This document shows, one piece after another, positions 4,113 through 26,747 of a stretch of 64,000 nucleotides of DNA. The DNA comes from Aquihabitans sp. G128 (GTDB taxonomy: Bacteria > Actinomycetota > Acidimicrobiia > Acidimicrobiales > Iamiaceae): contig NZ_CP077604.1 in the NCBI RefSeq assembly GCF_019048865.1, positions 3,720,001-3,784,000 of the forward strand, given 5' to 3'. Each line of letters begins with the position of its first letter. Within the stretch, counting starts at the first letter, position 1. Below the pieces are notes generated by a model, which ran no database searches, was not told the DNA's origin, and saw only the letters and a program-made list of their open reading frames with translations. A program made the position numbers and the translations under genes.

Positions 4113-4128
4113 TTGACAACTTGTTGAA
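4113..4128 (+). promoter_or_regulatory. TGTTGAA-type motif, site 1
   Basis: TTGACAACTTGTTGAA, 63 bp before the first Rieske oxygenase. TTGACA followed 17 bp later by GACGGT could also act as -35/-10. The flank GCCGGGCGACG continues to match site 10484-10499, so more than the -35 is conserved. Confidence 0.65.
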
Positions 4129-4191
4129 GCCGGGCGACGGTGGAGCACGCCGACCGGTCGTCCGTGGACCGGTCCCAGGAGACCGATCACC

Positions 4192-5274
4192 GTGCCCACG
4201 TCCTCGCTCACCGTCTCGTCCGAGCCCGCCGGGCCGTCCGACCTCACCCGGCTGTTCGAGCGCTTCTGGCACCCCGTCGCCACCATCGAGGAGCTCGAGG
4301 CCGCGGCGCCCCACCCTCTCGCCGTCACCCTCCTCGGTCGTCGCCTGGCGGTGGCCGACCTCGGCGCCGGCGGCATCGGCGCGGTGGCCGACCGCTGCCT
4401 GCACCGCTCCTCCAAGCTCAGCGTCGGGTGGGTGGAGGACGGGGCGTTCCGCTGCGGCTACCACGGGTGGCGCTGGGACGCCGCCGGCCGCTGCGTCGAG
4501 ATCCCCTCCATGCCCGACGGCCCGATCCCGCCGCGTGCGTGCATCCCGGCCTTCGACACGCAGATCGCGTACGGCCTGGTCTGGGTCCGCCTCGACGGCT
4601 CGGCCGACACGGTCGTGCCCGCCTGCCCCGCCTGGGCGGACGCCAGCATGAAGGTCGTGGCCGGCGGTCCCTACACCTGGCCGGTCAGCGCCCCTCGGCG
4701 GGTGGAGAACTTCGTGGACCTGGCCCACTTCGCCTGGGTGCACGACGGCAGCCTCGGGCGTCGGGACACCCCGGTGCCGCCGCTGCCACGGATCCGCCGC
4801 GAGGACGGCGAGCTGCGCTTCGAGTACGACCCGCCGGAGATGGAGACCGACGAGACCGCCCTGTTCGGCTTCTCCCGCTACCGCATGCCCATCCCGCTCT
4901 CGGTCAGCATCGACTTCGAGCTGGCCGACGGCGCCCGGCGCAACCTCTGGATGACCGCGTCCCCGGTCGACGACGGCTCGTGCCGCACCTTCTGGTTCGT
5001 GTCCCGCGACGACCGCCACGACGAGGACGACGGCCCGCACATGGACTTCCAGGCCCTGGTCCTGCGGGAGGACGAGCCGCTGGTGACCAACCAGGACCCG
5101 CCCGAGCTCTCGCTGGACCCGACCTTCGAGCTGTCGGTCCGCACCGATCGCGTCTCGATCGAGTACCGGCGCTGGCTGCGCGAGCTGGTGGCCGCCAACG
5201 CCGGTGACGGCACCGAGCTGGCAGCGGTCCTGGCCTCGGCGCGCGCCCTCGGCGAACAGCGCGTCCAGGGCTGA
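4192..5274 (+). CDS. Rieske non-haem iron oxygenase, NdmA/NdmB-like N-demethylase candidate
   Basis: 360 residues. The Rieske [2Fe-2S] ligands are DRCLHRSSKLS and RCGYHGW. The mononuclear iron site is in ENFVDLAHFAWVH (D-x2-H-x4-H pattern). By memory, FWHPV near the N-terminus, HPLAVTLLG, DRC-HRS-KLS-G, R-ENF-D-HFA-H and VSIEYRRWLREL near the C-terminus follow the methylxanthine N-demethylases NdmA/NdmB of Pseudomonas putida, which convert N-methyl groups to formaldehyde. The substrate here is therefore inferred as an N-methylated purine. AGGAG precedes GTG 4192 by 10 nt. It is first in a run with a second Rieske gene, an MFS transporter and a nucleoside hydrolase. No reductase partner is encoded nearby. 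Confidence 0.82.
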   Translation: MPTSSLTVSSEPAGPSDLTRLFERFWHPVATIEELEAAAPHPLAVTLLGRRLAVADLGAGGIGAVADRCLHRSSKLSVGWVEDGAFRCGYHGWRWDAAGRCVEIPSMPDGPIPPRACIPAFDTQIAYGLVWVRLDGSADTVVPACPAWADASMKVVAGGPYTWPVSAPRRVENFVDLAHFAWVHDGSLGRRDTPVPPLPRIRREDGELRFEYDPPEMETDETALFGFSRYRMPIPLSVSIDFELADGARRNLWMTASPVDDGSCRTFWFVSRDDRHDEDDGPHMDFQALVLREDEPLVTNQDPPELSLDPTFELSVRTDRVSIEYRRWLRELVAANAGDGTELAAVLASARALGEQRVQG

Positions 5275-5321
5275 TGCCCGCCCGCCGGCCCACCCGCCCG
5301 TCACGAGGAGGAACCGCCCCG

Positions 5322-5462
5322 ATGGAGCCCACCGACCACCTGCGCAACAACCCCGACGTGGACCGCCATCGCCCGGCCGGGGCCCCGCAGCGGCCGGCCC
5401 CCGTGGCCGTGGTCGTGGTCGAGGTCGACGCCGATGCCGCCGAGCTCGAGGTGGCGGCGTGA
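5322..5462 (+). CDS. 46-residue protein coupled to second Rieske oxygenase
   Basis: Begins MEPTDHLRNNPDVDRHRP and ends with an acidic/valine-rich segment (VAVVVVEVDADAAELEV). GAGGAGG lies 9 nt before the ATG, a better ribosome site than those of the flanking genes. Its TGA overlaps the GTG of the next Rieske gene (GTGA), so translation is probably coupled. Function not recognised. It could be a small accessory protein or a leader that sets oxygenase expression. No cysteine or membrane segment is present. Confidence 0.55.
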   Translation: MEPTDHLRNNPDVDRHRPAGAPQRPAPVAVVVVEVDADAAELEVAA

Positions 5463-6619
5463 TCCCCGCCGTGCTGACCAACGTCGACCCGTCGCTGCGC
5501 CGGGCCTGGCACCCCGTGGGCCGCGTCGATGACCTGGGCGACGGGCCCCGCAAGGTCACCCTGCTCGGCGAGGACTGGGTGGTGGTCCGCCTCGACGGGG
5601 AGCTGGCGGCCTACGCCGACGTCTGCCCCCACCGGCTGGCCCCGCTCTCGCTCGGCCACGTCGACACCGTCGGCGAGCGAGAGGTGCTGCGCTGCGGCTA
5701 CCACGGGTGGTGCTTCGAGGCGTCCGGCACCTGCACCGACATCCCCGCCCTGGGGGCGGGCGCCAAGCTGCCGCCCCGCTCGCGCGCCCGCACGCCGTTC
5801 GGCGTGACCGAGCACCTCGGGCTGGTGTGGCTGGCGCCCGAGGAGCCGGTCACCGCGCTCCCGGACCCGCCGATCGCCGCAGACGAGCTGGACCGCTTCC
5901 AGACCGGCCACCTCCCGGTGATCACCGCTCGGGCCGGGGCCGGGTCCATGGTCGACAACTTCCTCGACGTGGCCCACTTCCCGTTCGTGCACGCCGCCAC
6001 GATCGGCGTCGAGGACGCCACCGAGATCGGCGAGGTGGTCCTCGAGCGCGACGGCCTCTCGCTCACCATGCGCTCCGCCCAGGTCTTCCCGCACCGCGAG
6101 GACCCGGGCGTGGCCAGCGGCGAGCGGCCCCTGCTGCAGACGCGCCACGCCCGGTACCGCTACACCGCGCCCTTCGCCGCCTGGCTGCGCATGGACTACG
6201 AGGAGGCCGGCGGGTGCAACGTCATCACCTTCTTCATCCAGCCGGTCGACGCCGACCACGTCACGCTCTACGCCTCGGTCCACCGCGACGACCTCGACGG
6301 CGACGAGGCCCGGTTGGCCGCCGCCGTCGAGTTCGAGCACGCCGTCACCGCCGAGGACCTCGTGGTGCAGGAGGCCTTCGCCCAGAGGTCGATCCCGCTC
6401 GACCTCACGACCGAGGTGCACGTCAAAGCGGATCGCATGACCGTCGAGCTGCGCCGTATCCTCAAGGACTTCGTGGCCCAGGCCACCCTGATCGCCCCGC
6501 CAGTCGCAGGGCCCGCCGCCGAAGGGGCGGCTGACACCGGGACGCTCCCGGCAGAGAGCAGCAGCGATGAACCCGCCGACGGATCCCTCCACCCCGAAGG
6601 CGCTGCCGCCTCCGCATGA
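5459..6619 (+). CDS. Rieske non-haem iron oxygenase, alpha-type subunit
   Basis: 386 residues. Rieske cluster ligands are DVCPHRLAPLS and RCGYHGWCF, and the iron site is DNFLDVAHFPFVH. It belongs to the one-component-oxygenase branch (VanA/DdmC-like in motif style) that hydroxylates or dealkylates small ring substrates using electrons from a separate reductase. The GTG start at 5459 overlaps the TGA of the preceding small ORF, and the next in-frame GTG (5471) is the alternative. Length and motifs match the frameshifted third Rieske gene at 10.6 kb once that is corrected, so the two are probably paralogues. The 3' end overlaps the MFS gene by 53 bp, indicating one operon. Confidence 0.85.
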   Translation: MIPAVLTNVDPSLRRAWHPVGRVDDLGDGPRKVTLLGEDWVVVRLDGELAAYADVCPHRLAPLSLGHVDTVGEREVLRCGYHGWCFEASGTCTDIPALGAGAKLPPRSRARTPFGVTEHLGLVWLAPEEPVTALPDPPIAADELDRFQTGHLPVITARAGAGSMVDNFLDVAHFPFVHAATIGVEDATEIGEVVLERDGLSLTMRSAQVFPHREDPGVASGERPLLQTRHARYRYTAPFAAWLRMDYEEAGGCNVITFFIQPVDADHVTLYASVHRDDLDGDEARLAAAVEFEHAVTAEDLVVQEAFAQRSIPLDLTTEVHVKADRMTVELRRILKDFVAQATLIAPPVAGPAAEGAADTGTLPAESSSDEPADGSLHPEGAAASA

Positions 6620-8126
6620 GGGCCACCCGGACCGCTGGCGCATCCTCGCGGTGCTGTGCGCGGCCCTGTGCATCGTGGTGCTCGACAACACCATCCTCTC
6701 CGTCGCCGTGCCGAGCGTGGGCGAAGCCCTGCGGGCCGACGAGACCTCGCTGCAGTGGATCACCGCGGCCTACAGCCTGGTGCTGGCCGCCCTGCTCCTG
6801 CCGCTGGCCGGCCTGGGCGACCGCTTCGGGCGCAAGGGCCTGCTCCTGGTGGGGGTGGTCATCTTCGGCTCCTCTTCGGCGGGGGCCGCCTTCGCCGCCA
6901 CGAGCGGCCAGCTCACCGTGGCCCGCGGCCTGATGGGCATCGGCGGTGCCGCCACCATGCCGGCCACCCTGGCGGTCCTGGGCAACGTCTTCCCCGAGCA
7001 CGAGCGCGGGCGGGCCATCGCCCTGTGGTCCGGCGTGTCCGGGATTGCCGGCGCCGCCGGGCCGGTCGTCGGCGGCTTCCTGCTCGACCACTACTGGTGG
7101 GGCTCGGTGTTCCTGGTGAACGTGCCGGTGTGCCTGGCGGTCTTCGTGGCCGCGGCTCGGCTGGTGCCCACGTCGAAGGATCCCGCCACCCCGCCGGTCG
7201 ACGTCGCCGGCTCGCTCATCTGGTCCGCGGCGCTCGCCCTCCTGCTCTTCTCCTGCATCGAGGGCGGCGAGCGGGGGTGGAGCTCGGCGGTGGTCATCGG
7301 TTCGATCGCCGCAGGGCTGGCCCTGCTGGGCGCCTTCGCCTGGTGGGAGCGGCGCACGCCGCACCCGCTGCTCGCGCCCGCTGCGGTCGCCGACCACCGC
7401 ATGCAGGCGGGCATGGTGGCCGTGCCGGTCATCTTCTTCAGCGTGTTCGGCGCCCAGTTCGTGTTCACGCAGTGGCTCCAGGGCGTGCGGGGGCTCTCGC
7501 CGCTCACTGCCGGGCTGTGCTTCGCCCCCAACGCCGCGGCCGTGCTCATCGGCTCGCTCCTCTGCACCCGGCTCGTCGGCCGGCTGGGCCAGGGCCGGGC
7601 CGTGGCCGTCGGGCTGCTGGTCCTGGCGGGCGCGCTGGCCACCGGGGCCCTGTTCCACGGCAGCGTGCTGCCCGTGCTGCTGGCCGTCACCGTGGCCGGC
7701 TTCGGCGTGGGCCTGGCTTGCCCGCCGGCCGTGGAGCTGATCATGGGCTCGGTGCCGCCGGAGCACGCCGGCCAGGCCGCCGGGGTCAACGAGACCATCG
7801 TCGAGGCGGGCGGGGCGTTCGGCATCGCGGTGATGGGCACCGTGCTCGCGGTGACCGCCGGCGGGGTCGGCTCGGTCGCTCCCGATCGGCTGGTCGGACC
7901 GGCCGGCGCCGCTGCTCGGCAGCACTTCACTGCTGCGCTGCACGCCCCCCTGCTGGTGGCGGTCGGCCTGCTGGTGCTCGCCGCTGCGGTCGTGCTGCGC
8001 CGCACCCAGGGCACCTCTGCTGGTCGCCCGTCGGCCGCTGACGCCGGCTCGACGGCCCCGGTCGCCGTCGCGCCGGTCGGTGCCGCCGTCGCCATGCCCG
8101 CCCCACCCTCCGAGGAGCAGCCGTGA
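6567..8126 (+). CDS. MFS transporter, DHA2 (14-TMS) type
   Basis: 519 residues with about 14 hydrophobic segments. The signature GDRFGRKGLLL loop between TM2 and TM3 and the TM5 motif GVSGIAGAAGPVVGG are typical of H+-coupled DHA2 exporters. In this operon it may instead move the purine-like substrate or a toxic product across the membrane; direction cannot be read from sequence. The start overlaps the Rieske gene and its TGA overlaps the GTG of the nucleoside hydrolase, so it is co-transcribed. The C-terminal 45 residues are Ala/Pro-rich and probably unstructured. Confidence 0.85.
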   Translation: MNPPTDPSTPKALPPPHEGHPDRWRILAVLCAALCIVVLDNTILSVAVPSVGEALRADETSLQWITAAYSLVLAALLLPLAGLGDRFGRKGLLLVGVVIFGSSSAGAAFAATSGQLTVARGLMGIGGAATMPATLAVLGNVFPEHERGRAIALWSGVSGIAGAAGPVVGGFLLDHYWWGSVFLVNVPVCLAVFVAAARLVPTSKDPATPPVDVAGSLIWSAALALLLFSCIEGGERGWSSAVVIGSIAAGLALLGAFAWWERRTPHPLLAPAAVADHRMQAGMVAVPVIFFSVFGAQFVFTQWLQGVRGLSPLTAGLCFAPNAAAVLIGSLLCTRLVGRLGQGRAVAVGLLVLAGALATGALFHGSVLPVLLAVTVAGFGVGLACPPAVELIMGSVPPEHAGQAAGVNETIVEAGGAFGIAVMGTVLAVTAGGVGSVAPDRLVGPAGAAARQHFTAALHAPLLVAVGLLVLAAAVVLRRTQGTSAGRPSAADAGSTAPVAVAPVGAAVAMPAPPSEEQP

Positions 8127-9094
8127 CCCGCCGCCTGGTGATCGACACCGACGGCGGCGTCGACGACGCCGTCGCCCTCTGGTGGGCGCTCGGCGCGCCG
8201 GACGTCGAGGTCGTCGCCCTCGTGGCCACCTGGGGCAACGTCGACCGCGACCAGGCGGCGGCCAACCTGTGCCGCCTGCTCCACGCCGCCGGTCGACCCG
8301 AGATCCCCGTGGCGCTCGGTGCCGCCGACCACGTCGGCCCCACCCCGCTCACCACCACCGCCACCCACGTCCACGGCGTCGACGGCCTCGGTGGGGGTGC
8401 GCACCGATGGTCCACCGGCGCCATCGTGCCGGTGGCCGAGCCCGGCACCGAGCTCCTGGCCCGCCTCGCCGCCGAGCAGCCGGGCCAGCTCGACCTGGTG
8501 ACCATCGGTCCGCTCAGCACCCTGGCCCGCGCCCTCGAGGCCGAGCCGGCGCTGGCCGCCGGCTACCGCTCGCTCACCGTGATGGGCGGCTCGGTGCTGG
8601 CCGGCGGCAACGCCCTGCCCCTCGCCGAGGCCAACGTGGGCCACGACCCGCTGGCTGCCGCCCGGGTGGTCGACGGCGGCTGGCGCACCGAGCAGCCACC
8701 GCTGCTGGTGGGCCTCGACGTCACCATGCAGGCGCTGCTCTCGGCCGACGACGAGCTGGCCGCCGCCCGCTCGTCGGCCACCGTCGCCGGCCGCTTCCTG
8801 GCCGAGGCCCTCGCCGGCTACGCCGCCTTCTACGACTCGGTGGCCCAGACCCCGCCCGGCACGTTCCCCTGCCACGACCTCCTGGCCGTGCTGGCCGCCG
8901 CCGAGGTGCCGGTCATCACCGACGCCCCGACCTACCCCCTCGCCGTCGACACCGGCGGCAGCGCGGCCTGGGGGACCACGGTGGCCGACCGCCGCCCCGT
9001 CCCCGAGTCCGCCACCCCCGGCTTCGCCCCCTGGCGCGTCGCCCTCGGCGTCGACCCCGCCCCCTTCCGCCACGCCGTCCGCTCCCTCCTCTGA
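8123..9094 (+). CDS. inosine/uridine-preferring nucleoside hydrolase family protein
   Basis: 323 residues. The calcium/ribose site motif DTDGGVDDAVAL is at the N-terminus (DTDPGIDD in classic members), VMGGS and the GNALPLAEANVGHDPLAA segment supply ribose contacts, and HDLLAV near residue 253 supplies the active-site histidine and aspartate. The family cleaves the N-glycosidic bond of nucleosides to give free base and ribose. In context it would feed free (modified) purine bases to the oxygenases and phosphoribosyltransferases of this cluster. GTG start overlaps the upstream TGA. It is the last gene of the Rieske operon, which ends before the paired palindromes. Confidence 0.85.
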   Translation: MTRRLVIDTDGGVDDAVALWWALGAPDVEVVALVATWGNVDRDQAAANLCRLLHAAGRPEIPVALGAADHVGPTPLTTTATHVHGVDGLGGGAHRWSTGAIVPVAEPGTELLARLAAEQPGQLDLVTIGPLSTLARALEAEPALAAGYRSLTVMGGSVLAGGNALPLAEANVGHDPLAAARVVDGGWRTEQPPLLVGLDVTMQALLSADDELAAARSSATVAGRFLAEALAGYAAFYDSVAQTPPGTFPCHDLLAVLAAAEVPVITDAPTYPLAVDTGGSAAWGTTVADRRPVPESATPGFAPWRVALGVDPAPFRHAVRSLL

Positions 9095-9327: not shown

Positions 9328-10326
9328 TCAGGCGACGGCGTCTTCGGCGTCGGCGGCCATCCAGAGGTCGACGGCGTTGTCGGCGCGGGCCTTGAGGGCG
9401 TCGGGGGCGCCGCTGGCTCGGATGGAGCTGCGGGCGATGGCGGCGAGGTCGCAGTCGGTGAGGCCCATCTCGTCGCGGCAGAGGACGTACTCCTCGAGCA
9501 GGCCGGGGCCGAAGAGGAGCGGGTCGTCGGCGTTGAGCGAGCAGCTGACGCCGGCGGCGAGCAGGTCGGGGAGGGGGTGGTCGGCGATCGACGGGAACAC
9601 GCCCAGCAGCACGTTCGACGACGGGCACACGTCGAGGCACACGTCGGCGGCGGCGAGCCGCACCACCAGGTCCGGGTCCTCGACGGCACGCACCCCGTGC
9701 TGGATGCGGTGCGCGCCGAGGGCCTCGAGCGCACCGACCACGCTGGCCGGCCCCTCGAGCTCGCCGGCGTGCGGGGCCGAGAGCAGCCCGCCGGCCAGGG
9801 CGATGTCGAAGGCCTCGGCGAAGGGCTCGGGCGGGAACCCCGTCTCGTCGTTGTGGAGCCCGAAGCTGACCACGCCGTCGGCGGCGTGGCGCACGGCCAG
9901 GCGGGCCTGGGCCACGGCGTCGGCCGGGTCGAGCGTGCGGTCGGCGGCGATCAGGAGGCCGGTGCCGATGCCGTGGCGGGTGCCGGCGTGGACCAGCTCG
10001 TCGAGGATCACCTCCAGCACGTGCTCGTCCGGGCCGAGCAGCTCGCGGTGCTGCGGGATGTAGGTGGCGGGCTCCACCCACACCGCGCCGGCGAGGGCGG
10101 CGTCGGCCACCACCTCGTCGACGAGGCGCCGGAGGCTGGCCTCGCTGGTGAGCACCGCGCACGCCGCGACGTACATCTCGGCGAAGGCGCCGAAGGTGCC
10201 GAAGCCGCGCACCTGGGGCACCGGCACGCCGGCCTCGGCGGCGAGCTCGGCCAGGGTGGCCGGCCGCATCGCCCCCTCGAGGTGGACGTGCAGGTGGGCC
10301 TTGGGCAGCGCGGCGAGGTGACGCAT
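9328..10326 (-). CDS. adenosine deaminase family protein
   Basis: 332 residues. Zinc ligands and catalytic residues are intact: HLHVHLEGAMRP at the N-terminus, HAGELEGP with the catalytic glutamate, RIQHGV, CPSSNV and SLNADDP. The family hydrolyses the 6-amino group of adenine nucleosides, and related subgroups act on adenine or N6-alkyl adenines. The ATG at 10326 sits directly before the HxH strand with no extra N-terminus. It is divergent from the third Rieske gene across 270 bp that hold one TGTTGAA-type motif and a 16-bp direct repeat, so it is probably co-regulated with the island. Confidence 0.85.
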   Translation of the reverse strand: MRHLAALPKAHLHVHLEGAMRPATLAELAAEAGVPVPQVRGFGTFGAFAEMYVAACAVLTSEASLRRLVDEVVADAALAGAVWVEPATYIPQHRELLGPDEHVLEVILDELVHAGTRHGIGTGLLIAADRTLDPADAVAQARLAVRHAADGVVSFGLHNDETGFPPEPFAEAFDIALAGGLLSAPHAGELEGPASVVGALEALGAHRIQHGVRAVEDPDLVVRLAAADVCLDVCPSSNVLLGVFPSIADHPLPDLLAAGVSCSLNADDPLLFGPGLLEEYVLCRDEMGLTDCDLAAIARSSIRASGAPDALKARADNAVDLWMAADAEDAVA

Positions 10327-10596: not shown

Positions 10597-11758
10597 GTGA
10601 CCACCATCGACAACACCACCCCGGCGCTGCGCTCGGCCTGGCACGCCGTCGCCATGGCCCACGAGCTGGGTGATCGGCCCCACCAGGTCTGGCTGCTGGG
10701 CGAGCCGTGGGTCCTGGCGCGCCTCGACGGGGCGGTGGTGGCCTTCGAGGACCGCTGCCCGCACCGCCTCGCGCCGCTCTCGATCGGCTCGGTCGACGCC
10801 GACCTGGGCCTGCGCTGCGGCTACCACGGGTGGACCTTCGCCGCCGACGGCGGCTGCACCAGCATCCCGGCGCTGGGCGAGGGGGGCGCACCTCCCGCCC
10901 CGAGCCCGGCTCGTGCCGGCGTGGGGGGTGCAGGAGGCCTACGGCCTGGTGTGGCTGGCCCCGGACGAACCGCTGGCGCCCCTGCCGGACTTCGTGGAGT
11001 GGGGCCTCGACGGCTTCGACGGCTTCTGGAACGAGCCCCGGCGCTCGCCCACGAGCGCCGCCCAGCTGGTCGACAACTTCCTCGACGCCTCGCACTTCCC
11101 GTTCGTGCACACCGGCACGTTCGGCACCGACGAGGCGTCGCTGGTGGTGAACGAGCCCGTCGAGCGAGACGGGTGGCAGGTCCAGACGACCTTCGACACC
11201 TGGTACAAGAACTTCGACGACCCGCTGGTGGCCACCGGCGAGCACCCCGAGGTGCAGCCCCAGCGCCTGCTGAAGCAGGGCACCGCCGGCTACTCGGTGT
11301 ACCTGCGCCTGGCGTTCCCGGTCACCGGCGCCACGTTCTCGATCCTCTTCTGCTGCCAGCCCGAGACGGCCACCAGCACCCGCATCTACAAGCTCATGGC
11401 GCGCGACGACCTGGGCGGTGACGCCGCCCGCATCGCGTCGACCATCGACGACGAGCTGCGCATCCTCGAGGAGGACCTGGCCATCCTCGAGCGCTACGCC
11501 GCCATGCAGGTCCACCTCGACACCACCGAGTGCCACACGCGCGGCGACAAGCTGAGCGTGGCGTGGCGGCGGGTGCTGGGCGACCTGCTCCGCGCCACCG
11601 CTGCCGAGCCGGCCGAGGTCGTGGTCGACCTCCCGGCCGCCTCGGCGGCCGACTCGGTGGTGGACGAGCCCCACGCCGGCACGCCGGTGGTCGATGCGAC
11701 CTCGGCCGCCGGGCTGGCCCACGTGTCGGCCGACGCGGTGGCCGAGGCCCGGCGCTGA
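10597..11758 (+). pseudogene. third Rieske non-haem iron oxygenase, frameshifted
   Basis: GTG 10597 follows GGAGG. The first frame gives DRCPHRLAPLS and RCGYHGWTF (Rieske ligands) up to IPALGEG. The G6 run at 10881-10886 then shifts the frame by one, and the +1 frame continues with LPPRARLVPAWG, the iron site DNFLDASHFPFVH and the rest of the catalytic domain. Removing one G restores 386 residues, exactly the length of the second Rieske protein. The downstream frame keeps full coding quality and the next gene overlaps its stop, so I think this is a homopolymer error and the gene is functional. If the shift is real, only a Rieske fragment would be made. Confidence 0.8.
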
Positions 11759-17609: not shown

Positions 17610-17610
<1 letters not shown>

Positions 17611-19069: not shown

Positions 19070-20482
19070 ATGACCACCCCCGAGGCCCCTCTCGAAGCCC
19101 CTGCGGGCCCCCGCGAAGCCGACCTGCTCGTGCGCGGTGCACGGCTCGTGGCCACCGTCGACGACGAGCGCCGCGAGATCCCCGGCGGGTGGGTGGCGAT
19201 CACCGACGGCCTGGTGAGCGGGGTGGGCCCGGCGGGCTCGGAGCCGCCGGCCCGAGAGGTGCTGAGCGCCGACGGCTGCCTGGTCACGCCGGGGCTCATC
19301 AACACCCACCACCACCTGTACCAGAACCTCACCCGGGCCCACGCGCCGGCCAACCAGGACACGCTGTTCGGCTGGCTCACCACGCTGTACCCGCTCTGGA
19401 GCGGGCTCGACGAGGAGGCGGCGTACCTCTCGGCCTGGGTGGGCCTGGCCGAGCTGGCCCTCGGCGGCTGCACGACCTCCACCGACCACCTGTACGTCCA
19501 CCCGAAGGGCGGCGGCGACCTGATCACCGCCGAGATCACCGCCGCCCAGGAGCTGGGCATGCGGTTCCACCCGACGCGCGGCTCCATGAGCCGGTCGAAG
19601 AAGGACGGCGGCCTGCCGCCGGACTCGGTGGTGCAGACCGACGACGAGATCCTGGCCGACAGCGAGCGGCTGGTGGCGCGCCACCACGATCCGAGCCACG
19701 GTGCGATGGTGCGCATCGCCCTGGCCCCGTGCTCGCCCTTCTCGGTGACGCCGGAGCTCATGGTGGCCACCGCCGAGCTCGCCGAGCGCCTCGACGTGCG
19801 GTTGCACACCCACCTGGCCGAGGACCCCGACGAGGACACGTACTCGATGGAGACCTTCGGCATCCGCACCATCGACCACTTCGAGGCCTGTGGCTGGGGC
19901 ACCGACCGCTCGTGGGTGGCGCACTGCATCTACCCGAACCCCGACGAGATCGCCCGCATGGGCGCGTGGGGCACCGGCGTGGCCCACTGCCCGAGCTCGA
20001 ACATGATGATCGGCGGCGGGGGCATCGCCCCCGTGGCCGACTTCCGGGCGGCCGGGGTCCCCGTGGGCCTGGGCTGCGACGGCTCGTCGTCGACCGACTC
20101 CGCCTCGCTGTGGATGGAGGCCCGCAACGCCATGCTGCTGGGCCGCCTCCGGGGCGGCCCCGAGTCCACCGGCGCACGGGACGCCCTGGAGATCGCCACC
20201 CGCGGCTCGGCTGCCTGCCTGGGCCGCGAGGGCGAGCTCGGCCAGCTCGCGGTCGGCGCGGTGGGTGACCTGGTGTGCTGGCCGCTCGAGGGCCTGGCCT
20301 TCGCCGGGGCGGTCACCGACCCCATCGCCGCGTGGCTGCGCTGCGGTCCGAACGCGGCCCGCCACACCGTGGTCGCCGGCAAGGCCGTGGTGCGCGACGG
20401 CCTGCTGGTGCCGCCCGGCGTCGAGGACGTGCTCGCCCGCCACGAGGTCGCCGCCCGCCGCATCCAGGGCGTCCCCGCCTGA
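19070..20482 (+). CDS. 8-oxoguanine deaminase-like amidohydrolase
   Basis: 470 residues. Metal and catalytic motifs: NTHHHLYQNLTRAHAP (HxH and QNLTR), GGCTTSTDHLYVHP, LHTHLAED, WVAHCIYP, CPSSNM and GLGCDGSSSTDSASLW. The NTHHHLYQ-LTR, CDGSSSND-type and QDTLFGWL patterns are those of the 8-oxoguanine/isocytosine-like deaminases of cog0402 (Pa0142 group), which turn 8-oxoguanine into urate. Close relatives act on other 2-aminopurines, so the exact substrate is open. The second ATG (19070) was chosen because GAGG is 9 nt upstream; ATG 19061 abuts it. It is divergent from the importer operon. Confidence 0.8.
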   Translation: MTTPEAPLEAPAGPREADLLVRGARLVATVDDERREIPGGWVAITDGLVSGVGPAGSEPPAREVLSADGCLVTPGLINTHHHLYQNLTRAHAPANQDTLFGWLTTLYPLWSGLDEEAAYLSAWVGLAELALGGCTTSTDHLYVHPKGGGDLITAEITAAQELGMRFHPTRGSMSRSKKDGGLPPDSVVQTDDEILADSERLVARHHDPSHGAMVRIALAPCSPFSVTPELMVATAELAERLDVRLHTHLAEDPDEDTYSMETFGIRTIDHFEACGWGTDRSWVAHCIYPNPDEIARMGAWGTGVAHCPSSNMMIGGGGIAPVADFRAAGVPVGLGCDGSSSTDSASLWMEARNAMLLGRLRGGPESTGARDALEIATRGSAACLGREGELGQLAVGAVGDLVCWPLEGLAFAGAVTDPIAAWLRCGPNAARHTVVAGKAVVRDGLLVPPGVEDVLARHEVAARRIQGVPA

Positions 20483-20739: not shown

Positions 20740-20872
20740 GCTGCTCCGCGACGTGCTCACCGGTGGCCAGGTGCGACCGATCCCGGCCGGGTCGACCGGC
20801 GCCCGGACCGAGCTGGTCTCGGCGCAGGCCCACGTCAGCCAGACCGCCGCCACGTTCGGCCGCTGCCGGTGA
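20732..20872 (+). CDS. possible 46-residue ORF coupled to the second deaminase
   Basis: MLKLLRDVLTGGQVRPIP start. The TGA overlaps the GTG of the next gene (GTGA), the same coupling seen for the small ORFs at 5322 and 18943. The ATG lies inside the operator-like dyad and no ribosome site is seen, so the start or the ORF itself is doubtful. The remaining gap 20636-20722 shows nothing further. Confidence 0.35.
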   Translation: MLKLLRDVLTGGQVRPIPAGSTGARTELVSAQAHVSQTAATFGRCR

Positions 20873-21936
20873 CGGCCACCCTGCCGAGCCGGCCGACGAC
20901 CCTGGCGGGGGCGCTCGAGCTGCTCCCCAAGGTCGAGCTGCACTGCCACGTCGAGGGCGCCATCCGGCCGACGACGGTGATGGAGCTGGCCGCCAAGAAC
21001 GGCATCGCCCTCCCTGCGGACGACCCGACCGAGCTGTACCGCTACGAGTCGCTCAACGGCTTCCTCGAGGTCTTCTTCCTGGTGCAGGGCGTGCTCGCCG
21101 ACCAGGGCGACTGGGCTCGGATCGCCTACGAGGCAGCCGTGGACGGCGCCGCCCACGGCATGGTCTACCGGGAGTCCTTCTTCACCCCCGCCCGCCTCAT
21201 GGCCAAGGGCCAGGGCCTGGGCGCCATCATCGCCGGGCTCGACGAGGGCTGCGCGGCCGCCGAGGCCGAGACCGGCGTGGTCGTGAACCTGATCTGCGAC
21301 TTCGACCGTGAGTTCGGGCCGGAGGTGGCGCTGGCCACCGCCGAGGAGCTGGTGGCGCTGAAGCGGGCCGGCGCGCCGGGCATCGAGCGGGTGTTGGGCG
21401 TGGGCTACGACTCCATCGAGATCGGCCAGGAGCCGGGCTGGTACGCCGCGGCGTTCCGCACAGCGGGGGCCGGCGGCCTCCGGCGCACCGCCCACCAGGG
21501 CGAGAACTCCGGCCCCGACGCCATCCTGGCCTGCGTCGACCTGCTGGGCGCCGAGCGCATCGACCACGGCATGTCGATCCTGGAGGACCCCGACGTGGTG
21601 TCCCGGTTCGTCGACGACCGCATCGCGCTGACCGTCTGCCCGAACTCCAACATCCGCATCGCCAACGCCTTCCCGGAGCTGGCCCAGCACGTGTACCCCG
21701 CCATGCGGGAGGCCGGGATCCTCGCCACGCTCAACACCGACGACCCCGCCCTGACCGACCTCGACCTGGGCTACGAGTACGCCTCGGCGGCCGAGGCCTT
21801 CGGCTACGGCTGGGACGAGATGGTGGACATCGCCCTCGACGGCGTGGAGGCGTGCTGGTTGGAGGACGCCGACAAGGCCGGCGTGCGGGCCCGCGTGGCC
21901 GACGCCCGCGAGGCGCTGCGCCCCGACCTCGGCTAG
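20869..21936 (+). CDS. adenosine/adenine deaminase family protein with HQGE variant
   Basis: 355 residues. LHCHVEGAIRP, RIDHGM, CPNSNI and LNTDDPA are present, as in the adenosine/adenine deaminases. The catalytic HAGE is AHQGENSGPD here: histidine and glutamate remain but the alanine is glutamine, which sits near the purine N1/N3 side and may alter the substrate. It has a longer insert (LMAKGQGLGAII) than the paralogue at 9.3 kb. GTG 20869 overlaps the upstream small ORF. The gene ends 1 bp before the convergent PRTase gene. Confidence 0.82.
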   Translation: MTATLPSRPTTLAGALELLPKVELHCHVEGAIRPTTVMELAAKNGIALPADDPTELYRYESLNGFLEVFFLVQGVLADQGDWARIAYEAAVDGAAHGMVYRESFFTPARLMAKGQGLGAIIAGLDEGCAAAEAETGVVVNLICDFDREFGPEVALATAEELVALKRAGAPGIERVLGVGYDSIEIGQEPGWYAAAFRTAGAGGLRRTAHQGENSGPDAILACVDLLGAERIDHGMSILEDPDVVSRFVDDRIALTVCPNSNIRIANAFPELAQHVYPAMREAGILATLNTDDPALTDLDLGYEYASAAEAFGYGWDEMVDIALDGVEACWLEDADKAGVRARVADAREALRPDLG

Positions 21937-21937
21937 C

Positions 21938-22453
21938 TCAGCGGGGTGGGAGGCCGGCGACGGGCGGGAGCTTCGACCAGCAGAAGTTGATCCACGCGTC
22001 GGTCTGCTTCCACGAGTAGGTCGGCACGATCACCGAGTGGGGCTTGTGGTACAGCACCGCGGTGCGGGTCTCCTTCACGTGCTGGGCCAGCACCTCGCGC
22101 ACCAGGCGCAGCGTGTGCCCGGTGTCGGCCACGTCGTCGGCGATCAGCACGTCGAGGTCGGTGATGTCGACCAGGTTGAGGCTGGGAGGGAGCACCACCG
22201 GCACGTCCAGGCGGGCGTCGACGCCGGTGTAGAACTCGACGTTGATGGCGCCGCAGTTCTTCACCCCGAGGGCGTAGGCCAGGGCGCCGCCCACGGTCAG
22301 CCCACCTCGGGCCACCGCCACCACGATGTCGGGGATCCACCCGTCGGCGGCGATCTGCTCGGCCAGCTCTCGCGTGGCGGTGCCGAACAGCTCCCAGGTG
22401 AGCTCTTCGCGGTCCTCGGCGTCGGTCGCGTCGGTGGGGTTGACGTCGGTCAT
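21938..22453 (-). CDS. xanthine-guanine phosphoribosyltransferase-like PRTase
   Basis: 171 residues. GWIPDIVVAVARGGLTVGG is the Gpt-like N-terminal strand, and VLIADDVADTGHTLRLV holds the PRPP-binding DD-x4-G-T/H pattern. The WINFCW end resembles the purine-contact region of bacterial XGPRT. It would convert xanthine, guanine or a dealkylated purine to its nucleotide with PRPP. It is 60 bp downstream of the TrzN-like amidohydrolase on the same strand, so deamination and salvage may be coupled. Confidence 0.8.
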   Translation of the reverse strand: MTDVNPTDATDAEDREELTWELFGTATRELAEQIAADGWIPDIVVAVARGGLTVGGALAYALGVKNCGAINVEFYTGVDARLDVPVVLPPSLNLVDITDLDVLIADDVADTGHTLRLVREVLAQHVKETRTAVLYHKPHSVIVPTYSWKQTDAWINFCWSKLPPVAGLPPR

Positions 22454-22513: not shown

Positions 22514-23851
22514 TCAGGCACCGGCGAGCGCCGCCCGCCGCTCGAAGAGCTCCTCGGCCGCCGCCTGGGCCTGCTCCCGGACGGTGGCGACGTCGAACGT
22601 CGTCGGTCGACCGCCGGCCACCACCCGCTCACCGTCCACGAAGACGTCGCGGACGTCGTGGCCGTTGGCCGAGAAGACGACGTGGGCGGCGACGTTGAAG
22701 TCCCGGCCGTGCAGGACGGGCGTGGTGTGCAGCCCACCCAGGTCGATGGTGATCAGGTCGGCGCGCTTGCCCGGCTCCAGCGAGCCCGACACGTCGCCGA
22801 GGCCGGCGGCCCGCGCGCCCTCGATGGTGGCCATGGCCAGGACGTCCCACGGGTCGCCGGTGGTGGGGTCGAGCGTCGTGACCTTCTGCAGGAGCGACGC
22901 GAACTTCATCTCCTCGATGAGGTCGAGGTTGTTGTTCTCCTTCTCGCCGTCGCTGCCCAGGCCGACGTGCACGCCCTTCGCCCGCAGGTCGCCGATGCGG
23001 GCCGGCCCCGACGACAGCTTCATGTTCGAGCAGGGGCAGTGGGCCACCGAGGTCCCGGTCTGGGCCAGCAGCTCGATCTCGCGGTCGTCGAGCCACACGC
23101 AGTGCGCCACCAGCGTCCGGTCGCCCAGGATCCCGCGGTTGTAGAACTCCTCGATCGGTCGCCGGCCGAACTGCTTCAGCGACTCCTGCACCTCCCAGAT
23201 CGACTCCGACGAGTGGGTGTGGATGCCGGTGTCGAACTCGTCCGCCAGGTCGGCGGCGGCCCGGAACGCCGCGGGGGAGCAGTAGAAGAGGTGCTCGAGC
23301 CCCACCCAGGACCGCACCCGGCCGCCGGCGGTGGTGGCGGTGTGCTCGAGCAGGCGGCGGTTGGTCTCGATGGTCTCGAAGTAGTCGTAGCCCTCGAGGT
23401 CGGCCACGTACGGCACCAGGGTCGCCCGGATGCCCAGCTCGGTGGCGGCCGTCGCGCTGCCCTCCATGAACCGCCACATGTCCACCACCGACACGGTGCC
23501 GGCGAGCAGGCTCTCGGCGTAGCAGTGCAGGGAGGCGGCCTGGGCGATCTCCGGGGTCAGCGCCCTGTGGGCCGGGTCGACGTAGGTCTTGAGCCAGTCC
23601 CACAGCGACATCGACTCCGCGGTCCCCCGCAGCAAGCCCGAGTGGAGGTGGCAGTTGTGCAGCCCCGGGAGCACGGCGTGGCCGGTGGCGTCGACGACCT
23701 CGGCGCCGGCTGCCCGGGGATCGGCGTCGAGCTCGTCCACCGCGCCCACCGCGAGGATCGAGGTCCCCTCGATCAGCACCGAGCCGGGGTCGAAGGCGGT
23801 CGTGCCGCCGGTCATGGGGAGGACGATGCCGTTGCGGACGAGGGTGGCCAT
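22514..23851 (-). CDS. TrzN/SAH-deaminase-like amidohydrolase
   Basis: 445 residues. NCHLHSGLLRGTAE supplies HxH, IHTHSSES, VAHCVWLDD and CPCSNMKL follow, and GLGSDGEKENNNLDL supplies the catalytic aspartate, so the zinc/iron site is complete. The group includes S-adenosylhomocysteine/5'-methylthioadenosine deaminases, triazine hydrolases and guanine-type deaminases. The minus-strand promoter is unusually clear: TTGACG (part of a TGTTGAA-type site), 17 bp, GAGGTT, then 6 nt to ATG, implying a leaderless message under control of that site. Confidence 0.8.
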   Translation of the reverse strand: MATLVRNGIVLPMTGGTTAFDPGSVLIEGTSILAVGAVDELDADPRAAGAEVVDATGHAVLPGLHNCHLHSGLLRGTAESMSLWDWLKTYVDPAHRALTPEIAQAASLHCYAESLLAGTVSVVDMWRFMEGSATAATELGIRATLVPYVADLEGYDYFETIETNRRLLEHTATTAGGRVRSWVGLEHLFYCSPAAFRAAADLADEFDTGIHTHSSESIWEVQESLKQFGRRPIEEFYNRGILGDRTLVAHCVWLDDREIELLAQTGTSVAHCPCSNMKLSSGPARIGDLRAKGVHVGLGSDGEKENNNLDLIEEMKFASLLQKVTTLDPTTGDPWDVLAMATIEGARAAGLGDVSGSLEPGKRADLITIDLGGLHTTPVLHGRDFNVAAHVVFSANGHDVRDVFVDGERVVAGGRPTTFDVATVREQAQAAAEELFERRAALAGA

Positions 23852-24007: not shown

Positions 24008-24364
24008 GTGCCGGCCCGCCACCCCCTCCTCGCCTCCGTCCAGCCGGTCGCCGACGCTCTCGGAGCCACCGTGGTGGGCAAGTCCCGCCTGCGCTCCGAC
24101 GACATCCCGCTCGAGTGGGAGGGCGTGGTGGTGGGCGGCCTCCGCCTGCCCGACCAGGGCCCCGGGCTGCCCCAGCTGCTCGCCGCCGTGGAGGCCGAGC
24201 TGGGCGGCCCGCTCAGCGGCATGAGCCGCGAGCAGAAGCAGGTCGCGGTGGCCAAGCTCAACGAGCGCGGGGCCTTCCGCTACCGCAAGGCCGTCGAGGA
24301 CATCGCCGACGCCCTCGGCGTCTCCCGCTTCACCGTCTACAACTACCTGAACGCCCGGGGCTAG
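24008..24364 (+). CDS. DauR/YheO-type helix-turn-helix regulator, candidate regulator of the island
   Basis: 118 residues. The C-terminal half reads SREQKQVAVAKLNERGAF, then YRKAVEDIADALGVSRFT and VYNYLN, the pattern of the DauR/YheO HTH, whose recognition helix is SR(Y/F)TVYNYL. The N-terminal 65 residues are shorter than the PAS-like YheO domain and not recognised; they may sense a ligand. TAGCGT at 23995-24000 lies 7 nt before GTG, suggesting a leaderless message. It is flanked by two TGTTGAA-type sites and divergent from a regulon member, which makes it the best candidate to bind that motif. Binding is inferred. Confidence 0.7.
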   Translation: MPARHPLLASVQPVADALGATVVGKSRLRSDDIPLEWEGVVVGGLRLPDQGPGLPQLLAAVEAELGGPLSGMSREQKQVAVAKLNERGAFRYRKAVEDIADALGVSRFTVYNYLNARG

Positions 24365-24554: not shown

Positions 24555-25775
24555 CTACCAGTCGATGTCGTCGGGCATCTCGCCCCAGGTCTTGCCGGTG
24601 CCGGCGTAGGTGGGCAGCTCGGGGGTGGGGATCCAGGTGCCGGCCCGGACGCAGCCGACGGGCTGGAGGGCGGCGGGGGACTGGACCACCTCGACGCCGT
24701 CGGACACCGGGAAGGGGCCGTCGGTGCGCAGCCGCAGGACCGACACCTCGGCGTCGCGCCCGACCTCGAGCGCGCCCAGCTCGTGGGAGCGGCCGATGGC
24801 CCGGGCGCTGTTGCTGGTGCCCATGGCGATGACGTGGTGGAGGTCCAGGTCGAGCGCCAGCATCTTGGTGAGGGTCTCGGCCAGGGAGAAGACCGGACCG
24901 TTGATGTTGAACACGTTGAGGTCCGTCGACGCCGTGTCGGGCAGGTAGCCCTGGCCCACGAGGCGGCGGGCGTCCTTGAAGCGGAAGTCGGTGCCGGAGT
25001 GGCCGATGTCGAGCACCACCCCGCGGTCGACGGCGTCGCGGAACTCCGGGAGGGCCTTGCCGTCGGGCCCGCACATCCCACCGGCGCCACGGAAGGCGTG
25101 GGTGATGATGTCGCCGCCACGGAGCTGGCGGAGCAGGGCGGTCGGGGTGATCACCGGCGTGAACGGGAACCGCCCGAGGTGGACCATGACCGGCATGTCG
25201 CCGACGGCGCGCTGGGCGGCTTCGAGGAAGGGCGAGAACTCCGGGTCGCCCACGTGGCAGGCCCGGGCCTTGGCACCGATCACCACGTCCTTGTTGCGCT
25301 CGATCGACTCGGCGAGCGAGTCGAAGTCCAGGTTCCGGAGGTCGTTGGCGATCTCCAGCTTGTGGCAGATGAAGTCCTTGGTGGCCAGGTAGAGCTGGTT
25401 GGGGTCGATGAACGACAGCACCCGGGTCTTGGTGTCGGGGTGGTCGATGATCGCCCGGCGGCTGATGTCGAAGGTGGCCACGCCGCTCGTGCCGCCGTCC
25501 ACCAGCACGGGCACGCCCATGCCGACGCCCACCGAGTCGGGCTCCACGCAGAAGTCGCCGAGGCCGGCCATCACGTGGACGTGGATGTCGATGAGGCCGG
25601 GCGTCACCAGGAGGCCCGTGCAGTCGACGACCTCCACCCCGGGCTCGGCCAGGACCGTCGGGTCCAACGTCCCGATGGCGGCCACCTTCCCGTCGCGGAT
25701 CACCACATCGGTGGTCGTGTCGGTCTCCGAGGCCGGGTCGATGACCCGACCGCCCTGCAGCACCAGCGTCGTCAT
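24555..25775 (-). CDS. amidohydrolase of the EF_0837/AHA_3915 (deacetylase) type
   Basis: 406 residues. It begins LVLQGGRVIDPASETDTTTD, with GLIDIHVHVMAG (HxH), VIGAKARACHVGD where the bridging lysine is expected, VMVHLGRFP and IGHSGTDFRF, and ends in the usual beta-sandwich. The dihydroorotase-like fold with HVHV and the GGTSGVATFDI segment suggests the EF_0837 family, whose studied members hydrolyse acetylated or N-acyl compounds. The natural substrate is unknown. It is divergent from a LysR gene, a common regulator-target arrangement. Confidence 0.7.
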   Translation of the reverse strand: MTTLVLQGGRVIDPASETDTTTDVVIRDGKVAAIGTLDPTVLAEPGVEVVDCTGLLVTPGLIDIHVHVMAGLGDFCVEPDSVGVGMGVPVLVDGGTSGVATFDISRRAIIDHPDTKTRVLSFIDPNQLYLATKDFICHKLEIANDLRNLDFDSLAESIERNKDVVIGAKARACHVGDPEFSPFLEAAQRAVGDMPVMVHLGRFPFTPVITPTALLRQLRGGDIITHAFRGAGGMCGPDGKALPEFRDAVDRGVVLDIGHSGTDFRFKDARRLVGQGYLPDTASTDLNVFNINGPVFSLAETLTKMLALDLDLHHVIAMGTSNSARAIGRSHELGALEVGRDAEVSVLRLRTDGPFPVSDGVEVVQSPAALQPVGCVRAGTWIPTPELPTYAGTGKTWGEMPDDIDW

Positions 25776-25811
25776 GGCGCCATGGTGGGCGCGAACCGGG
25801 TGCGGGTCCAG

Positions 25812-25836
25812 TGCATCCTTCTTGTGGGATCATGCA
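25812..25836. promoter_or_regulatory. possible LysR operator
   Basis: TGCATCC and GGATCATGCA form an imperfect inverted repeat in the 69-bp gap between the divergent amidohydrolase and LysR genes, 9 bp before the LysR ATG. This fits autoregulation and control of the amidohydrolase. Confidence 0.45.
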
Positions 25837-25844
25837 GGTCATCT

Positions 25845-26747
25845 ATGGATGAGCTCAGCGGTGACCTGACCCTCCGGCAGCTGGAGTACCTCGTGGCCGT
25901 GGTCGACCTCGGGTCGGTGAGCCGGGCCGCCGCCCTCCTCCACGTCACCCAGCCCACCGTCTCGCACCAGCTGGCGCTGTTGGAGCGACGGGTGGGGGTG
26001 GCGCTGCTCGACCGGGTCGGCCGGGGGGTGCGGGCCACCCCGGCCGGCCGGGCGCTCGCCGGGACCGGGCGCGAGGTGCTCGAGGTCGGCCGCCGCGGGC
26101 TGGAGGTCGCCCGAGCCGCCGGCGCCTCGCAGGAGGTGCTCACCATCGGCGTGGTGTCGTCGCTGGCCGCCACCATCCTTCCGCCGGCGTTGGCGGCCTG
26201 GCACGCCGAGGAGCCGGACGTCGCGGTGCGGTTGCGCGAACACCTGCGCCGGGACGAGCTGGTCGAGGCGCTCCAGCGCAGCGAGGGCGAGGTGGGCATC
26301 GCCGCCCCGCCCACCGGCTGGCCCGGCGAGGTCGTCCCCCTGGGGTGGGAGCGCTACGTGCTCGTGCTGCCGCCGGGCTCGCCGCTGCTCGGTCGCAAGC
26401 GCCCGGTGGGACTCGCCGCGCTGGCGGAGGTCGACTGGGTCCTCTTCGACGCCGACCACGGGCTGCACGACCTGGTGCAGCGGGCCTGCGCCGAGGCGGG
26501 GTTCTCACCCCGCCCGGCGGTCCGCACCCGCCAGATCGACACCGCGGTCCGCCTCGCCGCGTCGGGCCTGGGCCCGGCGCTGGTGCCGGCCATCTCCGTG
26601 CCGGCGGAGCACGCTTCGCTGGTCGCCCCGTTCCGTCCCGCGCTGCGCCGGCCGGTCGCCGCCTTCGGGCCCGGCCTGGCCCGCCCGGCGGTGCGCCGCT
26701 TCCTGGCCCACCTCACCCCGGAGCGCACCGGCCTCGAGCCGCCGTAG
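25845..26747 (+). CDS. LysR-family transcriptional regulator
   Basis: 300 residues, normal length. The N-terminal winged helix reads LTLRQLEYLVAVVDLGSVSR, AAALLHVTQPTVSHQL and LLERRVGVALLDR, followed by a periplasmic-binding-like effector domain (from about residue 95). Start ATG 25845 gives MDELSGDLTLRQLEYL. It is divergent from the EF_0837-type amidohydrolase and probably controls it. No TGTTGAA-type motif is present here, so it may mark the right edge of the island. Confidence 0.9.
   Translation: MDELSGDLTLRQLEYLVAVVDLGSVSRAAALLHVTQPTVSHQLALLERRVGVALLDRVGRGVRATPAGRALAGTGREVLEVGRRGLEVARAAGASQEVLTIGVVSSLAATILPPALAAWHAEEPDVAVRLREHLRRDELVEALQRSEGEVGIAAPPTGWPGEVVPLGWERYVLVLPPGSPLLGRKRPVGLAALAEVDWVLFDADHGLHDLVQRACAEAGFSPRPAVRTRQIDTAVRLAASGLGPALVPAISVPAEHASLVAPFRPALRRPVAAFGPGLARPAVRRFLAHLTPERTGLEPP

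What the first reader, a model, noticed from the sequence alone, without database searches (positions are those of the whole stretch)
4113..26747. Candidate modified-purine uptake, dealkylation and salvage island
Seen: three Rieske oxygenases, a nucleoside hydrolase, two PRTases, two adenosine-deaminase-type enzymes, an 8-oxoguanine-deaminase-like enzyme, two TrzN/SAH-type amidohydrolases, an NMT1-type ABC importer, an MFS transporter and two regulators in about 22 kb, with tight overlaps (Rieske-PRTase, Rieske-MFS-hydrolase, importer-amidohydrolase). Known: the first Rieske protein resembles methylxanthine N-demethylases NdmA/NdmB by remembered motifs. Inference: imported or RNA-derived N-methyl purines are freed, demethylated, deaminated and returned to nucleotides. 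No xanthine dehydrogenase or uricase gene is in the window, so salvage rather than ring breakdown is favoured. I do not know this gene set as a described system in Actinobacteria.
Basis: partly seen in the sequence, partly recalled or inferred. Interest (0 to 1): 0.85.

Follow-up and report, generated by a model that had tools for sequence, protein, structure and literature searches.

The report
Purine demethylation and oxidation gene island
A probable actinobacterium carries a 22-kb gene island that very likely imports and processes purines, including an enzyme closely related to the ones that strip methyl groups off caffeine, which points to a little-explored way bacteria may recycle methylated purines.

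Summary
The island is real and recurs as a unit. Corrections: there are four amidohydrolases rather than three, the third Rieske gene is split by a frameshift, and importer and amidohydrolase do not overlap. Four relatives (one of the same genus, three of the same family) hold 12 to 18 of the 20 genes near each other, three of them rearranged; 12 of 12 MAG loci with the first Rieske gene (R1) show at least one partner. R1 is sister to the caffeine demethylases NdmA/NdmB and has the NdmB residue pair in 15 of 15 rows of its clade; R2 and R3 form another clade of unknown substrate. The 8-oxoguanine deaminase keeps 9 of 9 checked positions. Best reading: purine uptake, N-demethylation, deamination, then salvage and oxidation. 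"Salvage, not ring breakdown" does not hold for the genome: a second locus encodes HpxO-, OHCU-decarboxylase-, PuuE- and allantoate-amidohydrolase-type proteins beside two more Rieske genes, while no molybdenum xanthine dehydrogenase was found. Closest described kinds: the Pseudomonas methylxanthine cluster and the xanthine-riboswitch purine-oxidation operons of Proteobacteria. No substrate is shown; that R1 acts on N-methylpurines is inference.

The parts
4192..5274 (+). R1: Rieske oxygenase, NdmA/NdmB sister group, probable N-methylpurine N-demethylase
   Evidence: Pfam; PDB best NdmB 1.6e-74; tree; residues
5459..6619 (+). R2: Rieske oxygenase, separate clade, substrate unknown
   Evidence: Pfam; PDB best hits about 1e-25; tree
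6567..8126 (+). MFS transporter; its ORF overlaps R2
   Evidence: Pfam
8123..9094 (+). nucleoside hydrolase (IUNH), 4-nt overlap with MFS
   Evidence: Pfam; PDB
9328..10326 (-). ADA1: adenine/adenosine-deaminase-type, HxHxEG motif
   Evidence: Pfam; PDB best 3rys; start
10597..11758 (+). R3: Rieske oxygenase, reading frame changes near 10885; open in G014 and G020
11758..12375 (+). PRT1: phosphoribosyltransferase, 1-nt overlap with the R3 stop codon
   Evidence: Pfam; sequence; 82% match in G020
12426..13622 (+). alpha/beta-hydrolase lipoprotein, role unknown
   Evidence: Pfam
13667..15010 (-). AH1: amidohydrolase lacking the catalytic Glu
   Evidence: Pfam; NCBIfam
15033..15881 (-). ABC permease 1
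   Evidence: Pfam
15878..16738 (-). ABC permease 2
   Evidence: Pfam
16735..17610 (-). ABC ATPase
   Evidence: Pfam
17610..18695 (-). NMT1/THI5-like substrate-binding protein
   Evidence: Pfam
19061..20482 (+). AH2: 8-oxoguanine deaminase
   Evidence: NCBIfam PRK08203 593.6 bits over cut-off 532; PDB 7ww2; active-site positions
20869..21936 (+). ADA2: adenine/adenosine-deaminase-type, HxHxEG motif
   Evidence: Pfam
21938..22453 (-). PRT2: phosphoribosyltransferase
   Evidence: Pfam
22514..23851 (-). AH3: amidohydrolase nearest MTA/SAH deaminase
   Evidence: Pfam; NCBIfam; PDB 4f0r
24008..24364 (+). small HTH_22-type regulator
   Evidence: 72% identical to L022:4121-4477, which matches PF13309; also in G008, G014, G015
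24555..25775 (-). AH4: PRK09237/EF_0837-type amidohydrolase, the most faithful of the three partners tested
   Evidence: NCBIfam; co-occurrence; adjacency
25845..26747 (+). LysR-type regulator
   Evidence: Pfam

Best explanation
The island is the peripheral part of a purine-utilisation pathway with an N-demethylation branch. The NMT1-type ABC importer and the MFS protein bring in purines (inferred); the nucleoside hydrolase frees bases (family inference); R1, fed by an unidentified reductase, removes an N-methyl group as formaldehyde, most likely at the N3 side since it carries the NdmB residue pair (inferred); ADA1, ADA2 and AH3 deaminate or dealkylate aminopurines (inferred); AH2 turns 8-oxoguanine-type bases into urate (supported by sequence, not assayed). 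Hypoxanthine and xanthine return to nucleotides through the two PRTases (inferred), and urate goes to the second locus of this genome (HpxO, OHCU decarboxylase, PuuE, allantoate amidohydrolase). R2 and R3 are further oxygenases of the pathway with unknown substrates. Shown: gene content, recurrence as a unit, R1's kinship and residues, AH2's catalytic set, the urate locus. Inferred: all substrates and fluxes.
For: R1: NdmB and NdmA are its best PDB matches (254 and 251 bits; next family 107); the R1 clade (15 rows) is sister to NdmA+NdmB+Komagataeibacter (7 rows), joint support 100; at the two positions at which the printed NdmA chains 6ick and 6icp differ (that 6ick is wild type and 6icp a designed variant is recalled), R1 rows have Gln/Leu in 15 of 15 and rows of the NdmB subclade in 3 of 3, versus Asn/Phe in 3 of 3 of the NdmA subclade and 4 of 4 of the HpxD clade. 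AH2: over the curated cut-off and 9 of 9 checked positions kept in 7 of 7 sequences. ADA2 has Glu where adenosine deaminases 6n91 and 6n9m have Asp and where 3rys and 3ou8 have Glu. Unit; matches to R1 and to an ADA-type gene lie 25-72 nt apart on one strand in 5 of 12 MAG loci, and R1 and AH4 matches 0-62 nt apart in 5 of 12. Ring breakdown. NMT1 importers with Rieske and 8-oxoguanine-deaminase-like genes are regulated by xanthine in Proteobacteria (PMC7373994, passages and section 8); RF03054 lies just before the R1-like gene of L081.
Against: No activity is known. R1 is outside the NdmA/NdmB clade proper (about 43% identity to plasmid NdmA/B-like proteins). No reductase of the PDR/VanB kind close to R1 and only a 27% match elsewhere. 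R2 and R3 do not group with Ndm. No xanthine riboswitch in the window. HpxO (485.8 vs 500) and allantoate amidohydrolase (376.9 vs 399) score just under their cut-offs. Four relatives with the island lack OHCU decarboxylase, PuuE and uricase, so breakdown through allantoin is not part of the conserved unit. The importer's binding protein and permeases are only 39-47% identical in G014 and G020. What the Glu/Asp difference means in ADA enzymes is recalled.
Confidence: 0.62

Rival explanations
1. Plain purine oxidation: the Rieske enzymes hydroxylate unmethylated purines (HpxD-like, hypoxanthine to xanthine to urate) and replace the molybdenum xanthine dehydrogenase that this genome lacks.
For: No MoCoBD_1 protein in the genome while controls ring; HpxO and two Rieske genes lie together at the second locus; HpxD is annotated among neighbouring Rieske hits, and hpxDE are described for purine oxidation (PMC7373994).
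Against: R1 is not in the HpxD clade and lacks its Asn/Phe pair; G008, G014, G015 and G020 have R1 plus R2 or R3 and also a molybdenum XDH-like gene within about 3 kb of R1, so R1 does not simply replace it. The second-locus Rieske proteins do not group with HpxD either. MoaA is present.
Confidence: 0.22
2. Breakdown of another N-heterocycle (pterin, lumichrome or other natural product) by a purine-like gene set.
For: Amidohydrolases of the 8-oxoguanine deaminase group are promiscuous (PMC12828455, PMC13054789); R2 and R3 have no close solved relative.
Against: Nucleoside hydrolase, two PRTases, two ADA-type enzymes and, in L049, urate-pathway genes on the same contig all point to purines.
Confidence: 0.08
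3. s-Triazine herbicide degradation (TrzN/AtzB-like hydrolases plus N-dealkylation).
For: Triazine hydrolases are among the PDB matches of AH2 (226 bits), atrazine chlorohydrolase among those of AH3 (150 bits).
Against: The best named matches are 8-oxoguanine deaminase (405 bits) and MTA/SAH deaminase (210 bits); recurrence in 5 genomes and 12 MAG loci at 54-85% identity is unlike a recent xenobiotic cluster.
Confidence: 0.03
4. Loose pile-up of purine genes without joint function.
For: Gene order differs between genomes; R3, PRT1 and AH1 are not in every copy; L044, L048 and L050 show only one partner above the thresholds used in the stretch held.
Against: Rearranged order with kept content, tight same-strand R1-deaminase and R1-AH4 pairs, and AH4 in 5 of 5 genomes with R1 and 0 of 56 without.
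Confidence: 0.05

Closest known systems
Methylxanthine N-demethylase clusters of Pseudomonas putida and Paraburkholderia caffeinilytica
   Same: Rieske N-demethylases, purine transport and transcriptional regulators together; R1 is the sister group of NdmA/NdmB with NdmB's Gln/Leu pair
   Different: Here NMT1-ABC and MFS transporters rather than a nucleobase:cation symporter; no PDR-type reductase and no glutathione-formaldehyde gene among the ORFs examined; but many deaminases, a nucleoside hydrolase and PRTases
Xanthine-riboswitch (NMT1) purine-oxidation operons of Proteobacteria (PMC7373994)
   Same: NMT1/tauA-type importer, Rieske oxygenase, 8-oxoguanine-deaminase-like amidohydrolase; same combination in L081, L084, L085, riboswitch found in L081
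   Different: No riboswitch here; R1 only about 30% identical to those Rieske proteins; extra salgage-type genes (nucleoside hydrolase, PRTases)
HpxD/HpxE molybdenum-independent xanthine hydroxylase and hpx cluster
   Same: Rieske oxygenases plus an HpxO-type gene and allantoin genes in one genome without a molybdenum XDH
   Different: R1, R2, R3 and the second-locus Rieske proteins are outside the clade of the two annotated HpxD proteins
8-oxoguanine deaminase of Pseudomonas aeruginosa (7ww2) and the N2,N2-dimethylguanine hydrolases (PMC13054789)
   Same: AH2 is 47% identical to 7ww2 with all 9 checked positions
   Different: Between the Gln and the first Trp, AH2 and 7ww2 have 17 residues' spacing (counted by eye), the dimethylguanine hydrolase 11 by its numbering (Q74, W85)

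Membership tests
NdmB-type methylxanthine N3-demethylase (R1) | Rieske CxH-CxxH and mononuclear-iron motif | tested here: met
NdmB-type methylxanthine N3-demethylase (R1) | Gln/Leu pair where NdmA has Asn/Phe | tested here: met
   15 of 15 R1 rows (14 distinct proteins, L027 and L040 being one record); Q287 and L291 also invariant in alignment A2, which holds G020
NdmB-type methylxanthine N3-demethylase (R1) | falls inside the NdmA/NdmB clade | tested here: not met
   sister to it, joint support 100
NdmB-type methylxanthine N3-demethylase (R1) | cognate PDR-type (NdmD-like) reductase | tested here: not met
   one 27% match about 1 Mb away; the query was a PDR/VanB reductase from L136, not NdmD itself
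NdmB-type methylxanthine N3-demethylase (R1) | N3-demethylation of methylxanthines | not testable with these tools
   needs assay
8-oxoguanine deaminase (AH2) | over the curated NCBI cut-off | tested here: met
   593.6 vs 532
8-oxoguanine deaminase (AH2) | Gln after strand 1, metal His, Glu, His, Asp and aromatic pocket residues | tested here: met
   9 of 9 positions in 7 of 7 sequences
HpxD xanthine hydroxylase (R1) | groups with annotated HpxD | tested here: not met
Xanthine-riboswitch purine-oxidation operon | NMT1 importer + Rieske + 8-oxoguanine-deaminase-like gene | tested here: met
Xanthine-riboswitch purine-oxidation operon | RF03054 riboswitch | tested here: not met
Adenine-type deaminase (ADA1, ADA2) | Glu instead of Asp in HxHx(E/D)G | tested here: met
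   for ADA2; ADA1 read by eye; meaning of the residue recalled
MTA/SAH deaminase (AH3) | over a curated cut-off | tested here: not met
   under the cut-offs of all 25 families shown of 43; catalytic Glu, His, Asp and metal His are kept

The most novel reading that the evidence does not exclude
An undescribed actinobacterial pathway in which NdmB-like Rieske enzymes demethylate N-methylated aminopurine bases released from nucleic acids (such as 3-methyladenine or methylguanines), coupled to adenine-type deaminases and AH4, with two alternative ends: HpxO-allantoin degradation in some genomes, and a molybdenum hydroxylase plus luciferase-like monooxygenase module without allantoin genes in others.
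Probability: 0.28. Interest if true: 0.8.

Novelty: new variant of a known kind. Interest (0 to 1): 0.58.

Why it matters
How bacteria dispose of methylated purine bases from RNA and DNA turnover is, in my judgement, little charted; the Rieske N-demethylases that have been characterised come from caffeine degraders. A deep sister group of NdmA/NdmB, placed next to deaminases, salvage genes and (in some genomes) urate breakdown, gives a concrete set of enzymes to test and suggests that caffeine demethylases may have arisen from older purine-recycling enzymes.

Tried and rejected
Considered and rejected: triazine degradation; loss of molybdenum cofactor synthesis as the reason for the missing XDH (MoaA present in 9 of 9 genomes); an apparent allantoinase-aminotransferase fusion at the second locus (the allantoinase model is split over two frames there, so the fused frame is probably an indel artefact). 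Less favoured: dimethylguanine hydrolase for AH2 (loop length). A PDR/VanB-type reductase was sought and none found near R1. Mistakes mended: one search aligned three R1 loci on the wrong strand (redone); one search used native numbering on tagged chains (redone); the cut for L081 was out of frame and is ignored; the HTH, and PRT1, the alpha/beta-hydrolase and the HTH, were translated in the wrong frame (redone, which replaces those three rows). Structure prediction was not used.

Literature: the listings show no paper on NdmA/NdmB-type enzymes in Acidimicrobiia; four were cut (12 of 709, 12 of 32, 15 of 144 and 12 of 13 papers shown), and the library holds open-licence papers only. Papers: PMC13054789 abstract, passages and sections 7-8; PMC12828455 abstract and section 5 part 1 of 3; PMC7373994 passages and section 8; PMC8752792, PMC9830774, PMC4408171 and PMC12709175 passages. 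The last three bear on background only.
Full report
OBSERVATION. The window is 3720001-3784000 of a single 4.94-Mb contig. Family scans of selected ORFs confirm the listed genes, with the corrections given in the observation check. Tight coupling is real for R2-MFS-nucleoside hydrolase, R3-PRT1 (1 nt) and the importer genes (1-4 nt), but importer and AH1 are about 22 nt apart. R3 has its Rieske domain and its C-terminal domain in different frames, changing near 10885 at a run of G; in G014 and G020 one frame is open through that place. The allantoinase at the second locus is split over two frames too, and completeness is given as 92% for one contig, so uncorrected indels are a likely cause; this is inference.

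ORGANISM. Its habitat is not known to me.

RECURRENCE AS A UNIT. Of 61 genomes (own plus 60 relatives), 5 hold an R1 match of 69% or more: G000, G008, G014, G015, G020 (41 of 61 have some match at E 0.001). G008 (same genus) keeps LysR, AH4, HTH, AH3, PRT2, ADA2, AH2, NMT1, ATPase, both permeases, the alpha/beta-hydrolase, ADA1, NH, MFS, R2 and R1 in the window's order; R3, PRT1 and AH1 were not seen there. G014, G015 and G020 (same family) keep a good part of the set rearranged: AH1 and PRT1 were seen in G020 only, R3 in all three, R2 not in G014, and NH, ADA1, PRT2 and MFS not in the G015 stretch held. AH4 was found in exactly those 5 genomes (p 1.7e-7, not corrected for relatedness). AH2 is wider: 15 of 61. 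R1 and an ADA-type match lie within 72 nt on one strand in 5 of 12, R1 and AH4 within 62 nt in 5 of 12.

RIESKE PROTEINS. R1's best solved relatives are NdmB (1.6e-74) and NdmA (1.3e-73), then a drop to about 1e-29. In a tree of 106 Rieske rows (quick IQ-TREE), R1 and its orthologues (15 rows, support 98) are sister to NdmA, NdmB and plasmid relatives from Paraburkholderia caffeinilytica, Pseudomonas putida and Komagataeibacter (7 rows, 99), joint support 100. G020's R1 is not in the tree (cut between two loci). The two annotated HpxD proteins fall in another clade. R2 and R3 sit together in a further clade of mostly actinobacterial rows without a characterised member among them. Several rows are long-branched and the support is SH-aLRT alone. 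At the two positions that differ between the NdmA chains 6ick and 6icp, R1 rows have Gln and Leu in 15 of 15, as NdmB does; NdmA has Asn and Phe, as do 4 of 4 HpxD-clade rows; the second-locus pair member has Gln and Ala. That these residues steer N1 versus N3 choice is recalled; PMC8752792 (passages) says that loop and active-site exchanges between NdmA and NdmB alter the activity.

HYDROLASES. AH2 exceeds the NCBI cut-off for 8-oxoguanine deaminase, is 47% identical to the P. aeruginosa enzyme and keeps 9 of 9 checked positions in 7 of 7 sequences; the role of these positions is from PMC13054789 (sections 7 and 8) and PMC12828455 (section 5, part 1). AH3 keeps the catalytic Glu, His and Asp but not the Gln of guanine deaminases, and is nearest MTA/SAH deaminase. 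AH1 has Ala in place of the catalytic Glu in both copies examined. ADA1 and ADA2 are nearest 3rys and 3ou8; ADA2 has Glu where adenosine deaminases 6n91 and 6n9m have Asp. That 3rys and 3ou8 are adenine deaminases is recalled; PDB calls them adenosine deaminases.

WHERE THE PURINE GOES. G000 has no MoCoBD_1 protein (5 of 14 control genomes ring) and no uricase (0 of 9 genomes), but its second locus (G000:C1:4690001-4710000, L028) encodes HpxO (485.8 bits, cut-off 500), PuuE allantoinase (433.7, cut-off 424.6), an allantoate-amidohydrolase-like protein (376.9, cut-off 399) and an aminotransferase, OHCU decarboxylase and two Rieske proteins related to R1 and R2. G003 of the same genus has OHCU decarboxylase and PuuE. 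MAG locus L049 holds HpxO (483.5), PuuE (483.5), an allantoate-amidohydrolase-like protein, AH4, R1, ADA1 and AH2 together. In contrast G008, G014, G015 and G020 carry an XDH-like molybdenum hydroxylase within about 3 kb of R1 (74-76% identical to that of G015; the G015/L040 protein scores 822 against a cut-off of 830 for selenium-dependent XDH), with a luciferase-like monooxygenase and an amidohydrolase between (only the L040 monooxygenase was scanned, the others are its BLAST kin), but none of OHCU decarboxylase, PuuE or uricase. HpxO at E 1e-60 was found in 1 of 61 genomes, G000 itself. So the island seems to feed two different ends.

COMPARISON. PMC7373994 (passages, section 8) describes, in Proteobacteria only, xanthine-riboswitch genes for NMT1/tauA-type transporters, Rieske enzymes like HpxD, 8-hydroxyguanine-deaminase-like amidohydrolases and nucleoside transporters. 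The same combination appears in Burkholderiales loci L081, L084 and L085, and L081 has the riboswitch just before its Rieske gene, L084 and L085 none at the gathering score; the window has none. Hence the kind of system is known, but the Ndm-sister enzyme, the deaminase pairing, AH4 and the salvage genes make it a variant. The methylxanthine-type clusters on plasmid stretches L133 and L134 hold a symporter, reductase and formaldehyde genes not seen here.

VERDICT. Purine island: very likely. R1 as N-methylpurine demethylase: likely, untested. R2 and R3: unknown. Salvage only: not so at genome level.

Noticed in passing
window 10597-11758: R3 reading frame changes near 10885 at a run of G; one open frame in G014 and G020. 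Possibly an assembly indel.
   Followed up: partly
window 13667-15010: AH1 has Ala where related deaminases have the catalytic Glu, also in its G020 orthologue; what it catalyses is unclear.
   Followed up: partly
L020, L023, L024, L040, L042, L043, L045: A luciferase-like monooxygenase gene lies beside R1 with an amidohydrolase and often an XDH-like molybdenum hydroxylase; in the four of these genomes tested (G008, G014, G015, G020) OHCU decarboxylase, PuuE and uricase were not found. Could be a different purine-oxidation end.
   Followed up: partly
L041:6694-7902: A PhyH-type dioxygenase sits between the importer and a Rieske gene; PhyH-type bacterial enzymes demethylating 2'-O-methyl nucleosides are described in PMC12709175 (passages read).
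   Followed up: no
L028:7111-9183: OHCU decarboxylase and an allantoate-amidohydrolase-like domain appear in one open frame at the second locus.
   Followed up: no
L057, L059, L061, L062: Three R1-like Rieske genes within about 10 kb in several Acidimicrobiia or Acidimicrobiaceae MAG contigs; the residue pair varies in this group.
   Followed up: no
L081:5339-5391: Xanthine riboswitch RF03054 directly before an R1-like Rieske gene in a Comamonadaceae MAG.
   Followed up: yes
window 470-4069: Catalase and GGDEF-EAL genes lie on the side of R1 where G008 has the luciferase-like and XDH-like genes.
   Followed up: partly
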